Source: a virus. From it: 32,657 bases of DNA. Position 1 is the stretch's first letter, and the number at the start of each line of letters is the position of its first letter. The notes beneath the pieces are model-generated. The model did no database searches. It saw only the letters and a list, made by a program, of their open reading frames with translations, and had not been told where the DNA came from. The stretch is taken from positions 1-32,657 of the IMG/VR virus record IMGVR_UViG_3300033571_010858. The stretch is one strand, 5' to 3'. Shown piece by piece: positions 21,823 through 27,126 of this stretch. The position numbers were made by a program, and so were the translations under genes.

Positions 21823-22286
21823 CGTGAAACCCCTTTCGTTGAAACACTGCCCCGATTCCGCTTCTCTTCTGCAATCGCCCGCTTCATCCACCGGAACCCG
21901 TTCCACTCACGCTCGTCGAGTTGCACCTCGCCCGACTCCACGGCCGCGATGAACTCCCGCACGGTTCGCTTCGGGCTCGCGTCGTCCTGGTCCTCGATGA
22001 TCTGACCTTTCCGGCCCGTCGCAGTTCCGCCGACCCGAGCTTGCTTGTTTTGCCTGCGGATCTCTCGCAGCCGACCACACAGGCGAGACATCAGCTTTTG
22101 TGTTCCGGAATTCGTTCGATACTCCTCGCGGATGGCGGCTTCGGCTTGAGCCAAATCCATGTCACGAATTTCGTCAACAAAGATGTCCCGCTGTTCGCTG
22201 CACCAGTACGAAGGCCACTGCTCATCAAGGGTTGAAGGCCAGCAGCTTCCAACCAATTTCAAAGCTGCACGCTGATCGTTGTTCAT
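21819..22286 (-). CDS. putative helicase-loader-like protein
   Basis: 155 residues from ATG 22286 (ATGA overlap with the initiator, GGAG seven bases upstream). The N-terminal ~75 residues (LVGSCWPSTLDEQW, FVDEIRDMDLAQAEAAIREEY, KLMSRLCGRLREIRR) are all-helical with the rough pattern of phage helicase loaders of the G39P type, in which a short helical domain precedes a flexible tail. The C-terminal part is charged. Position directly after the initiator gene fits loading of a host replicative helicase, since no phage helicase is seen. The family call is weak. Confidence 0.4.
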   Translation of the reverse strand: MNNDQRAALKLVGSCWPSTLDEQWPSYWCSEQRDIFVDEIRDMDLAQAEAAIREEYRTNSGTQKLMSRLCGRLREIRRQNKQARVGGTATGRKGQIIEDQDDASPKRTVREFIAAVESGEVQLDEREWNGFRWMKRAIAEEKRNRGSVSTKGVSR

Positions 22287-23122
22287 CTTGCGTCTCCATC
22301 CAGCCAAGCGTCTATGTCAACCAATTTGTTCTTGCGCTTTTCCCCATCGCCCGTCCCTGCACGCCACTCGTCGATTTGCCCGACGACGCACGCGACGGCG
22401 TAGCTGACACCCTTGAACGGCGTGCCCCGCACCCGCAGGGCTTCGGCGGCCTGAGCCGCCAGCGTGACGGCTGGCACCAGAGCCCCGCCGTGGGGCACAG
22501 GAGCCGCTTCAGCAAGTTCCCCGGACAATCGCTCGCCCAACTGCTGCGGCTCGCCCCTAGCGGCATCCAGGCCCCTCTTGCGTGAAGCTGACGCCCAGCG
22601 GTCGCACATCCGCACGGCCTCGCCGATCGCGTCGGCGGTTTGCGGGCTCGGCTTCGGGGAATTTCCGGGGGGGGTATATAGGGGGGTATTCTCTTCTTTT
22701 CTCTTCTCTACTATTGGGGCGGTTTCTGACCGGTTGGAAACCGGTTGGAAAACCGTTTGCGACCGGTTCTCAACCGGTTCAAAACCGGTTGACGATGGAC
22801 ATTTTTCAATCCATCCGATGTCGATCAGGATGTTCCAGTACCGGGTGATGTCACGCTTCGGGGTGCCGAGTTCGGCGGCAACATCTTCGGGCGTCATGTC
22901 GCGCCCGTTCATCGTCAGTGCCCCGCCCGTCCTTTCGCGGGCGACAATCGACACGACGGCCAGGAAGATGATGTAAGCCTCTCGACCTGCGGCCGTAGAC
23001 ATGAGGGTGCGGAATCGCACAGACCGGCGCGTGACGGGGTACTTACACCAGCTCACATCGCGGTGCGCCTCCACATCCTTCAGCCAGAACACCTTCTTGA
23101 AATCCTTGATACGCATGGTCAT
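22283..23122 (-). CDS. replication initiator with winged-helix N-terminus
   Basis: 279 residues. Residues ~35-110 (FRTLMSTAAGREAYIIFLAVVSIV, MTPEDVAAELGTPKRDITRYWNILIDIGWIEK) match the winged-helix N-terminal domain of phage replisome organiser proteins. Residues 114-135 are two 11-residue repeats (FEPVENRSQTV, FQPVSNRSETA) encoded by iterons. A Pro-rich linker follows, and the C-terminal part (~160-279) resembles the helicase/loader contact region of DnaD- or O-like proteins. The arrangement copies lambda O, where the origin lies inside the initiator gene. The CGAGGG before ATG 23122 is a weak ribosome site; GGAGGAG lies farther upstream. No phage polymerase or helicase gene was found, so host replication proteins are likely recruited. 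Confidence 0.75.
   Translation of the reverse strand: MTMRIKDFKKVFWLKDVEAHRDVSWCKYPVTRRSVRFRTLMSTAAGREAYIIFLAVVSIVARERTGGALTMNGRDMTPEDVAAELGTPKRDITRYWNILIDIGWIEKCPSSTGFEPVENRSQTVFQPVSNRSETAPIVEKRKEENTPLYTPPGNSPKPSPQTADAIGEAVRMCDRWASASRKRGLDAARGEPQQLGERLSGELAEAAPVPHGGALVPAVTLAAQAAEALRVRGTPFKGVSYAVACVVGQIDEWRAGTGDGEKRKNKLVDIDAWLDGDAR
22670..22727 (-). other. candidate duplex-unwinding element beside the iterons
   Basis: This stretch is unlike its GC-rich surroundings. It combines a G-rich run with TATATA and a pyrimidine tract (TTCTCTTCTTTTCTCTTCTC at 22690..22709). On the coding strand it directly follows the iterons, the same order as in the lambda origin. It codes for the initiator's Glu/Lys-rich and Pro-rich linker. 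Confidence 0.5.
22728..22793 (-). repeat. six 11-bp iterons: candidate replication origin
   Basis: The heptamer ACCGGTT occurs at 22729, 22740, 22762, 22773 and 22784, with a degenerate copy (ACCGTTT) at 22752, so six units lie in tandem at about 11-bp steps, one helical turn each. Each unit contains the palindrome ACCGGT. Helical phasing, position inside the initiator gene and the adjacent AT/pyrimidine-rich stretch together argue for an initiator-bound origin. Confidence 0.75.
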
Positions 23123-25347: not shown

Positions 25348-25595
25348 AGGGCACCCCCATTGATCTTGACGAACTTTGGGAGATTGGCGTCGATCTCCAT
25401 GACCCAGCGAACCGGCACGCCACGCACCGCCGCAAACACCCGCTGCTCAGGCGTTGCCATCGCGTCGTCGTAGATCCGCTCATGCTTGCGGATTTCGGCC
25501 AAGTTCAGCGCCGTGTGCCGCTCATTGGCGCGGGCAAGTTCCGCCGCCTGCGGGTCCAAGTCGTCAATCCGTTCGCCTTCGATCTTCGTCGTCAT
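25344..25595 (-). CDS. first gene of the early operon, hypothetical, 83 residues
   Basis: It starts MTTKIEGERIDDLDPQA and is mostly helical (AELARANERHTALNLAEIRKHERIYDDA) with a short C-terminal strand (PVRWVMEIDANLPKFV). A GGGAGG lies four bases before the ATG inside a small hairpin whose stem touches the start codon. It overlaps the integrase reading frame by 32 bases. It is the first of the coupled series running down to 16303. Function unknown. Confidence 0.6.
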   Translation of the reverse strand: MTTKIEGERIDDLDPQAAELARANERHTALNLAEIRKHERIYDDAMATPEQRVFAAVRGVPVRWVMEIDANLPKFVKINGGAL

Positions 25596-26916
25596 CGGAC
25601 CTCCCTTGGGTCCGACTCAGCAGGCGGGAACATTGAACCAGAAGGGACGCGGCAGTCTGGAGGATTTCAGCTACCGTGTCGTTCATGGGGGAGGCGGGTT
25701 CAAATCCCGCCACCCCGATTCGGTTCTCCCTCCCTTTGCGGGGAGGGGAACCCTTCTTCGTCAGGCTCTCGCACTGCGGAATCGGATCGTGGAACTCAAC
25801 TGCAACGCCCCGACTCTCGGGGTTGCCCCCGAAATTCTCACGTTCGCCAATGCTCGGCAGAGTCGGGGCGTTGTCGTCGAGTTGTGATGGTTGTTGAGCA
25901 TTGGACCTCTGAACGTGAGTGGGATGATCTTCGGCGTTTCCCGCCTCCGGGTCAACAATATTCCCGCGAATTTTTCCCGCATCCGGAATTCCCGCTGACG
26001 CCATCATGTCATTGAGGGCGGCGCTGAGGCCCATCAATCGCGGGTCCGTGTAATGACGGAGGGTCGTGCGCAAGTCTTTGTGCCCAACGATCATGGCAAG
26101 TTTCAATGGGTCGATGTTTCTCGACAAGGCATCGGTGATGAACGTCTTCCGCAGACTGTGCCACTGGCCCGCATCGCGGATGCCCGCCGATTCAAAATCT
26201 GTGTCGATCACCTTCGGGTGGGGCCAGCTTGGCCATACGCGGGCCTCAGGATCGCCCTGGGCGTGCCTCTTGAGGATGTCGAGTGCTGGCCCGATCAAAG
26301 GCACGCGGCGAATCTGACGGCTCTTAGCGGCCCGTGCGGGGATGGCTAGATGGGGCTCGGGAGTGCGGACCTGAATCCACCCGCGCCGCATGGCCTGCAT
26401 CTCGCCCAGCCTCAGCCCGGTCCACCTTGCCACCAAATACAGCTCGCTTCGGTCGGCATCGTGCCTCCGGTAAATTGCGGAATTTGATCGGTTGCCCAGC
26501 GGTCCTTTCGGCGGCTTGGCTTCGTCAGCTCGGGCGCACGCGATCAACCGATCGAACTCGGCAGAGGAAAGGGCTCTGGGTTCATCGACCTCCAGGATTC
26601 GCGGGAGCGTCACACGGGATGCCCACGGATCGGCCAGCATGTCCCGATCCCGCAGCCACTTCTGAAAGCTCGCCATCATCGCGCGCTTGTTGTGCTTCGT
26701 CTTTGATGAAACGGCAGCCGCGAGGAGGAAGGTTTCGTAGGCCGTGCGTCCGCCGGCCAGATCCTCCACGTCCGCCCAGCCGAGGGCGAGCGTGGTCCGA
26801 TCAAGCTCCCGCCGCGTGTGGGCAGCGTCCCGCGCCGGCGTGCCCGTAGACACCTGCCACCGCTCATACTCCACCAGCAACGGCGCGAGTCCCACCCGAG
26901 TTTGCGGCGTCTCCAT
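25564..26916 (-). CDS. int: tyrosine integrase
   Basis: 450 residues when started at ATG 26916, 40 bases after a sigma70-like promoter; the frame stays open to a GTG at 27048, but that part lacks a ribosome site. Residues ~8-100 are a SAM-like core-binding domain. Catalytic residues are Arg 169 (TGLRLGE), Lys 198, His 253 and Arg 256 (HSLRK), His 279 (VGHKD) and Tyr 289 (HYTD). The tail from ~306 to 450 (145 residues) is not part of the known fold. It covers attP-like repeats, and residues 401-407 (GVAGFEP) are the antisense translation of a tRNA T-arm. The style resembles Planctomycetota integrases. It would join attP to a host tRNA gene. Confidence 0.9.
   Translation of the reverse strand: METPQTRVGLAPLLVEYERWQVSTGTPARDAAHTRRELDRTTLALGWADVEDLAGGRTAYETFLLAAAVSSKTKHNKRAMMASFQKWLRDRDMLADPWASRVTLPRILEVDEPRALSSAEFDRLIACARADEAKPPKGPLGNRSNSAIYRRHDADRSELYLVARWTGLRLGEMQAMRRGWIQVRTPEPHLAIPARAAKSRQIRRVPLIGPALDILKRHAQGDPEARVWPSWPHPKVIDTDFESAGIRDAGQWHSLRKTFITDALSRNIDPLKLAMIVGHKDLRTTLRHYTDPRLMGLSAALNDMMASAGIPDAGKIRGNIVDPEAGNAEDHPTHVQRSNAQQPSQLDDNAPTLPSIGERENFGGNPESRGVAVEFHDPIPQCESLTKKGSPPRKGRENRIGVAGFEPASPMNDTVAEILQTAASLLVQCSRLLSRTQGRSDDDEDRRRTD
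25596..25614 (-). promoter_or_regulatory. hairpin over the ribosome site of the first early gene
   Basis: CGGACC (25596..25601) and GGTCCG (25609..25614) form a 6-bp stem abutting ATG 25595, with a 7-base loop. On the coding strand the Shine-Dalgarno AAGGGAGG runs from loop into stem. It resembles the loop-SD hairpin at 16193..16208 at the head of the late operon. Confidence 0.45.
25691..25720 (+). other. attP: attP core: tRNA 3'-end fragment
   Basis: The bases form a perfect tRNA T-arm, stem GCGGG (25694..25698) / CCCGC (25706..25710) around TTCAAAT, followed by acceptor strand CACCCCG (25711..25717) and discriminator A. No full tRNA precedes it. Tyrosine integrases typically recombine into tRNA 3' ends, and this block would restore the host gene. 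The acceptor strand pairs with CGGGGTG, common in tRNA-Pro, but the identity is not certain. Confidence 0.8.
25728..25747 (+). other. GC hairpin just beyond the attP core
   Basis: CCCTCCC (25728..25734) and GGGAGGG (25741..25747) form a 7-bp stem with a 6-base loop, ten bases past the tRNA end. It may be the captured terminator stem of the host tRNA gene or an integrase/IHF-type site. No clear T run follows. Confidence 0.4.
25803..25919. repeat. two interleaved inverted repeats in the attP region
   Basis: Repeat A is a perfect 15-bp inverted repeat (25803..25817 with 25859..25873). Repeat B is split: CTCACGTTC (25837..25845) and CCAATGCTC (25847..25855) pair with GAACGTGAG (25911..25919) and GAGCATTGG (25896..25904), 9 + 9 bp. 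The order A-B-A'-B' is interleaved, so both cannot form as simple nested stems. The arrangement suits integrase arm sites or a pseudoknot. Confidence 0.85.
25938..25995 (+). repeat. four TTCCCGC direct repeats near attP
   Basis: TTCCCGC occurs at 25938..25944, 25961..25967, 25974..25980 and 25989..25995, same strand, spaced 23, 13 and 15 bases. They lie where the integrase catalytic domain ends and its attP-encoded tail begins. Arm-type integrase or excisionase binding sites are plausible. Confidence 0.6.
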
Positions 26917-26955
26917 ACAAAGAGATTCGCAGATCCCGGCGTTCAATCCCCGTAA

Positions 26956-26984
26956 ATTAGCGGAAAAGATGCCCGCTAGGTCAA
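26956..26984 (-). promoter_or_regulatory. candidate integrase promoter
   Basis: On the minus strand TTGACC (26984..26979, 5/6 of the -35 consensus), a 17-bp spacer, and GCTAAT (26961..26956, 4/6 of the -10). Transcription would start near 26949, ahead of ATG 26916, which supports the shorter integrase start. Confidence 0.45.
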
Positions 26985-27126
26985 GATTAGCCCAGTGTTT
27001 GTGGCCCGTTTGGTCTTCGGTCACCAGCCATGCACGGAAGATGGCCACGCCCCATCTATATGCCAGACCGATGGGGGTCGTGGGAAAGCGGCGTGACCGG
27101 AGCGTGTCAGGGCATTGTGGCCGGCG

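What the first reader, a model, noticed from the sequence alone, without database searches (positions are those of the whole stretch)
25803..25919. Interleaved inverted repeats A-B-A'-B' beside attP
A perfect 15-bp inverted repeat is interlocked with a split 9+9-bp repeat whose two halves are 1 base apart on one side and 6 on the other. Chance is unlikely. It may form a pseudoknot in RNA or place integrase monomers around a DNA bend.
Basis: seen in the sequence. Interest (0 to 1): 0.65.

Follow-up and report, generated by a model that had tools for sequence, protein, structure and literature searches.

The report
Interlocked palindromes inside phage attachment site
The two interlocked inverted repeats are real and far beyond chance; they lie inside the tail end of a phage integrase gene that doubles as its chromosome-attachment site, but no relative shares them, so they look like a lineage-specific ornament (most likely strong RNA hairpins) rather than a conserved machine.

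Summary
Arm A (15 bp perfect, 25803-25817/25859-25873, extending to 25 nt at 88%) interlocks with split arm B (9+9 bp; halves 1 and 6 bases apart). It is the strongest inverted repeat in the window; shuffles never came near it. The block lies within codons 377-419 of a 494-aa tyrosine-integrase ORF (25564-27048, -), between the catalytic Tyr and a tRNA 3' end (25694-25718, probably tRNA-Pro; attP core). About 50 Planctomycetota relatives (27-37% identity) were fetched. In 26 an antisense tRNA T-loop lies 218-438 nt after the Tyr, and in 21 the int frame runs open through it, so attP inside int's 3' end is this family's architecture (known precedent: phage Mx8). None of the 26 has significant interlocked repeats of this size. 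Better integrase arm-site candidates are four GCGGGAA copies (25938-25995), mirrored by one beyond the core; some relatives have analogous short repeat arrays. My best guess is RNA-level: very stable hairpins (z to -8) at the convergent junction of int and the tRNA gene. A DNA accessory site or a mutational relic is nearly as likely. No close relative exists, so covariation could not be tested. Modest interest.

The parts
25803..25817 (+). Arm A, perfect 15 bp (weaker extension to 25793)
25859..25873 (+). Arm A' (weaker extension to 25883)
25837..25855 (+). Arm B, 9+1+9
   Evidence: I13, I14
25896..25919 (+). Arm B', 9+6+9
   Evidence: I13, I14
25564..27048 (-). Tyrosine integrase ORF, 494 aa; catalytic domain about aa 200-340; R-K-HxxR-H-Y all present; the tail runs through the IR block and the attP core
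25694..25718 (+). attP core: tRNA 3' end (T-arm and acceptor), probably tRNA-Pro
   Evidence: 25 nt found in 24 bacterial contigs, mostly at tRNA 3' ends; of seven contigs scanned by ARAGORN, six give tRNA-Pro and one tRNA-Gly there; 29 of 30 nt match to a phage tRNA-Pro
25722..25752 (.). Short hairpin directly after the core (possible end signal of the tRNA gene)
   Evidence: -23.7/-23.2 kcal/mol; several relatives have their best stem in the same place
25938..25995 (-). GCGGGAA x4 (25938, 25961, 25974, 25989): candidate integrase arm-type sites
   Evidence: 4 copies in 58 nt, never more than 3 in 1000 codon shuffles
25624..25630 (+). Fifth GCGGGAA, on the other side of the core and inverted: candidate opposite-arm site

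Best explanation
The block is a lineage-specific pair of interlocked palindromes in the linker of a Planctomycetota-type phage tyrosine integrase, where the 3' end of int, the int-side attP arm and the tRNA-derived core overlap. Most likely it works as RNA. In int mRNA the A stem (8+15 bp, about -57 kcal/mol) forms and traps B in its loop. In RNA read from the tRNA side (as would occur in the prophage) A and B are almost equally stable alternatives. Such hairpins would pause, cut or insulate the two transcription units that converge at this junction in the lysogen. Shown: the geometry, its improbability, its position, the family architecture, and the predicted stabilities. Inferred: that RNA, not DNA, is the acting form, and what the hairpins do.
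For: Arms of 15-25 bp, separated by 40-65 nt, suit RNA stems better than protein half-sites (inference). The A region folds at z -8.2 (-) and -6.6 (+), and B on the + strand at z -5.6 with a G-U-extended stem. On the + strand the A and B states are -58.8 and -60.2 kcal/mol; on the - strand -60.0 and -44.3. int is convergent on the tRNA end in the window and in 26 relatives. A separate GCGGGAA array already supplies plausible integrase arm sites, so the palindromes are not needed for that role.
Against: No U-tract and no terminator or promoter match in the region. No relative has the structure. Perfect DNA palindromes fold well as RNA whatever their role. If the tail is translated, ribosomes would melt the sense-strand hairpin. 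No covariation data exist.
Confidence: 0.36

Rival explanations
1. The palindromes are DNA sites in the attP intasome: accessory binding sites (Xis/RDF, a host bending protein, or a second set of integrase sites) spaced between the arm array and the core.
For: They lie between candidate arm sites (25938-25995) and the core (25694-25718). B halves have start-to-start spacings of 10 and 15 bp, helical-phase-like values. Non-conservation is expected for phage-specific sites. Predicted arm sites of mycobacteriophage CrimD also come as pairs, inverted relative to each other, flanking a tmRNA-end core, with a stem-loop terminator between the core and P3 (PMC3203893).
Against: A 15-bp perfect arm (25 nt in all) is longer than the 7-11 bp arm-type sites in this window and in CrimD. 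A and B share no motif with the GCGGGAA array. Relatives do without them.
Confidence: 0.3
2. A neutral or selfish relic: a palindromic insertion (REP/MITE-like) or template-switch products tolerated in a disordered linker.
For: The linker is longer than the family median (353 versus about 290 nt). The block is unique among 26 relatives. The tail is weakly conserved in sequence.
Against: No second copy in the window, and none in the viral, phage or plasmid collections. Insertion would have had to keep the int frame open. A simple inverted duplication gives A-B-B'-A', not A-B-A'-B'.
Confidence: 0.26
3. A true H-type pseudoknot in int mRNA (or its antisense) with both stems formed at once.
For: The topology is that of an H-type pseudoknot.
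Against: Stems of 18-23 bp with connecting loops of 12, 3 and 19 nt would need threading of two long helices. Each structure alone already reaches about -60 kcal/mol on one strand. No slippery heptamer in the right frame was found upstream (GGGAAAC at 25943-25937 is out of register, read from the sequence).
Confidence: 0.06

Closest known systems
Myxococcus phage Mx8 int/attP
   Same: attP lies inside the int coding sequence, so integration gives int a new 3' end (PMC6070905).
   Different: Here the core is a tRNA 3' end, and interlocked palindromes sit between the catalytic domain and the core. The Mx8 sequence was not compared here.
Mycobacteriophage CrimD (cluster K1) attP
   Same: Core is the 3' end of a structured RNA gene (tmRNA), predicted arm-type sites in inverted orientation on the two sides, stem-loop between core and one arm (PMC3203893).
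   Different: 11-bp arm repeats; no interlocked long palindromes are described in the section read. attP lies on the 5' side of int rather than in its 3' end.
Phage lambda sib retroregulation (own knowledge, not looked up)
   Same: A strong hairpin near attP in the int transcript.
   Different: sib lies across the core from int and is separated from it on integration; this block stays attached to int.

Membership tests
Tyrosine integrase with attP inside its 3' coding end (Mx8-like layout; Planctomycetota prophage integrases) | Tyrosine recombinase with R-K-HxxR-H-Y | tested here: met
   PF00589 E 3.9e-9; phrog_1 integrase 3.9e-26; catalytic residues invariant in the alignment
Tyrosine integrase with attP inside its 3' coding end (Mx8-like layout; Planctomycetota prophage integrases) | int frame open, antisense, through a tRNA 3' end downstream of the catalytic Tyr | tested here: met
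   Window: open at 353 nt. Relatives: 21 of 26 open
Tyrosine integrase with attP inside its 3' coding end (Mx8-like layout; Planctomycetota prophage integrases) | Recombination at that core | not testable with these tools
   No integrated copy or empty attB of this phage was found
Heterobivalent (lambda-like) attP with arm-type sites | Short repeated sites on both sides of the core | tested here: met
   GCGGGAA x4 on one side, x1 inverted on the other; binding untested
Arm-type sites formed by the A/B palindromes themselves | Arms share a common motif with each other or with the repeat array | tested here: not met
   No 7-mer shared between A, B and GCGGGAA (sequence)
RNA pseudoknot | Covariation in both stems among relatives | not testable with these tools
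   No relative has the block; nearest integrases about 30-37% identical
Intrinsic terminator | G+C hairpin followed by a U-tract | tested here: not met
   None found in 25500-26200
Known Rfam RNA family | Covariance-model match | tested here: not met
   No match in the window at gathering thresholds

The most novel reading that the evidence does not exclude
A bistable RNA element inside attP: RNA read from the host tRNA side flips between the A and B hairpins (predicted within 1.4 kcal/mol), while int mRNA is locked in A, so int expression or tRNA read-through is tied to whether the phage is integrated.
Probability: 0.08. Interest if true: 0.65.

Novelty: new member of a known kind. Interest (0 to 1): 0.3.

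Why it matters
It fixes the attachment-site anatomy of a phage with a Planctomycetota-type integrase. It also shows that in this integrase family the 3' end of the gene, the attP arm and the tRNA-derived core usually overlap, so integration should rewrite the integrase C-terminus. The interlocked palindromes would add an expression or intasome control layer if functional, but there is no evidence yet that they are.

Tried and rejected
Close int relatives in viral and genome collections: none. Terminase relatives (up to 43%) carry no close integrase. attP core in viral contigs: none. Palindrome A as a pattern: none. Palindrome B half-pairs: 14 viral stretches, none with the second arm. BLAST of the block in phages and plasmids: chance-level only. 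Integron attC-like reading: first arm fits the RYYYAAC motif, but the partner arm breaks it (sequence). Frameshift pseudoknot: slippery site out of frame. Intrinsic terminator: no U-tract. Myxococcota as alternative source of relatives: none at E 1e-13. In one search the 'second stem' column is invalid (masked N paired with N) and was replaced.

Full report
OBSERVATION. A: 25803-25817 / 25859-25873, perfect 15 bp, part of a 25-nt pair at 88%. B: 25837-25845 + 25847-25855 paired with 25896-25904 + 25911-25919. The order is A-B-A'-B'. A is the only perfect inverted repeat of 12 bp or more within 130 nt anywhere in the 32.7-kb window, and the pair is the best interlocked pair in the window. Of 25 whole-window dinucleotide shuffles the longest stem was 13 and the best interlocked sum 20. 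Of 500 synonymous-codon shuffles of int the longest stem was 14 and the best sum 20. Observed: 15 and 24, or 33 with both halves of B.

SURROUNDINGS. All ORFs for which a family match was found lie on the minus strand. The block lies in codons 377-419 of the 494-aa integrase ORF 25564-27048 (-), after the catalytic Tyr (aa 333). Nearer the ORF's end, at 25694-25718 (+), are 25 nt also found in 24 bacterial contigs, mostly at tRNA 3' ends; of seven contigs scanned by ARAGORN six give tRNA-Pro there and one tRNA-Gly. No whole tRNA gene is present in the window. This is the expected look of an attP core. A small hairpin follows it at 25722-25752. The int-side arm holds GCGGGAA (int sense) four times in 58 nt (25938, 25961, 25974, 25989), with a fifth, inverted copy at 25624 beyond the core. 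Codon shuffles of int never gave more than three copies of any 7-mer in such a span. One spacing is 13 nt, so the repeat is not a protein repeat. These are the best candidates for integrase arm-type sites.

RELATIVES. No close integrase relative was found. About 50 Planctomycetota integrases with 27-37% identity were fetched. In 26 of those measured an antisense tRNA T-loop lies 218-438 nt after the catalytic Tyr, mostly 245-312 (window 353), and in 21 the int frame is open through it, although the chance of that was at most 0.26 for each. So int reading antisense through the tRNA-derived core is the family architecture. By inference integration replaces the C-terminus of Int, as described for Mx8 (PMC6070905). 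Several relatives carry short direct repeats at 10-14 bp spacing in the same linker (L108 GCTTGGGGC, L116 ACAAAAA, L141 TCCCCGTTG), analogous to the window's GCGGGAA array. Interlocked palindromes are absent: none of the 26 reaches the window's score (24 versus 17 at most), and linker folding is on average near random (mean z -0.8 sense, -0.7 antisense, against -4.8 and -2.9 for the window). Where relatives have a strong stem it is often next to the tRNA, matching the window's 25722-25752 hairpin rather than A/B.

MECHANISM. As RNA the block is very stable. On the int-sense strand the A state (-60.0 kcal/mol) beats the B state (-44.3). On the other strand A (-58.8) and B (-60.2) are near equal, helped by G-U pairs that extend B. 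This makes mutually exclusive hairpins more plausible than a pseudoknot of two helices of about two turns each. In a lysogen int and the tRNA gene converge here, so a structured RNA could pause, be cut, or insulate. There is no U-tract or promoter match. As DNA, the block sits between likely arm sites and core, where accessory proteins could bind; CrimD offers a partly similar predicted layout (PMC3203893). As a relic, the longer linker and the uniqueness fit, but no other copy was found. I rank RNA slightly above DNA and relic; none is shown.

VERDICT. Real, non-random, correctly linked to attP, but lineage-specific and without evidence of function. The integrase-monomer and pseudoknot readings are each weakened. 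Known kind of locus with an unusual local feature.

Noticed in passing
25938-25995 and 25624-25630: GCGGGAA x4 on the int side of attP and once inverted on the other side: candidate integrase arm-type sites. The motif resembles the core flank GGCGGGTT.
   Followed up: yes
25564-26049: Int C-terminus is encoded through the tRNA-derived core, so integration should swap it. The same layout holds in 21 of 26 Planctomycetota relatives measured.
   Followed up: partly
22729-22791: Iteron-like array ACCGGTTNNAA, period 11, about 6 copies, inside ORF 22283-23122 (-), which might be a replication initiator gene; possible replication origin.
   Followed up: no
L104, L116, L117, L120, L121, L124, L126, L130 (int tails): A recurring peptide (A/K)TGT, often followed by D or N, about 20-35 residues after the catalytic Tyr in otherwise unalignable integrase tails; absent from the window.
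   Followed up: no
L090:3097-3188 (-): ARAGORN calls a 92-nt tRNA-Gly(CCC) with a long variable arm, unusual for glycine, in a deltaproteobacterial MAG.
   Followed up: no
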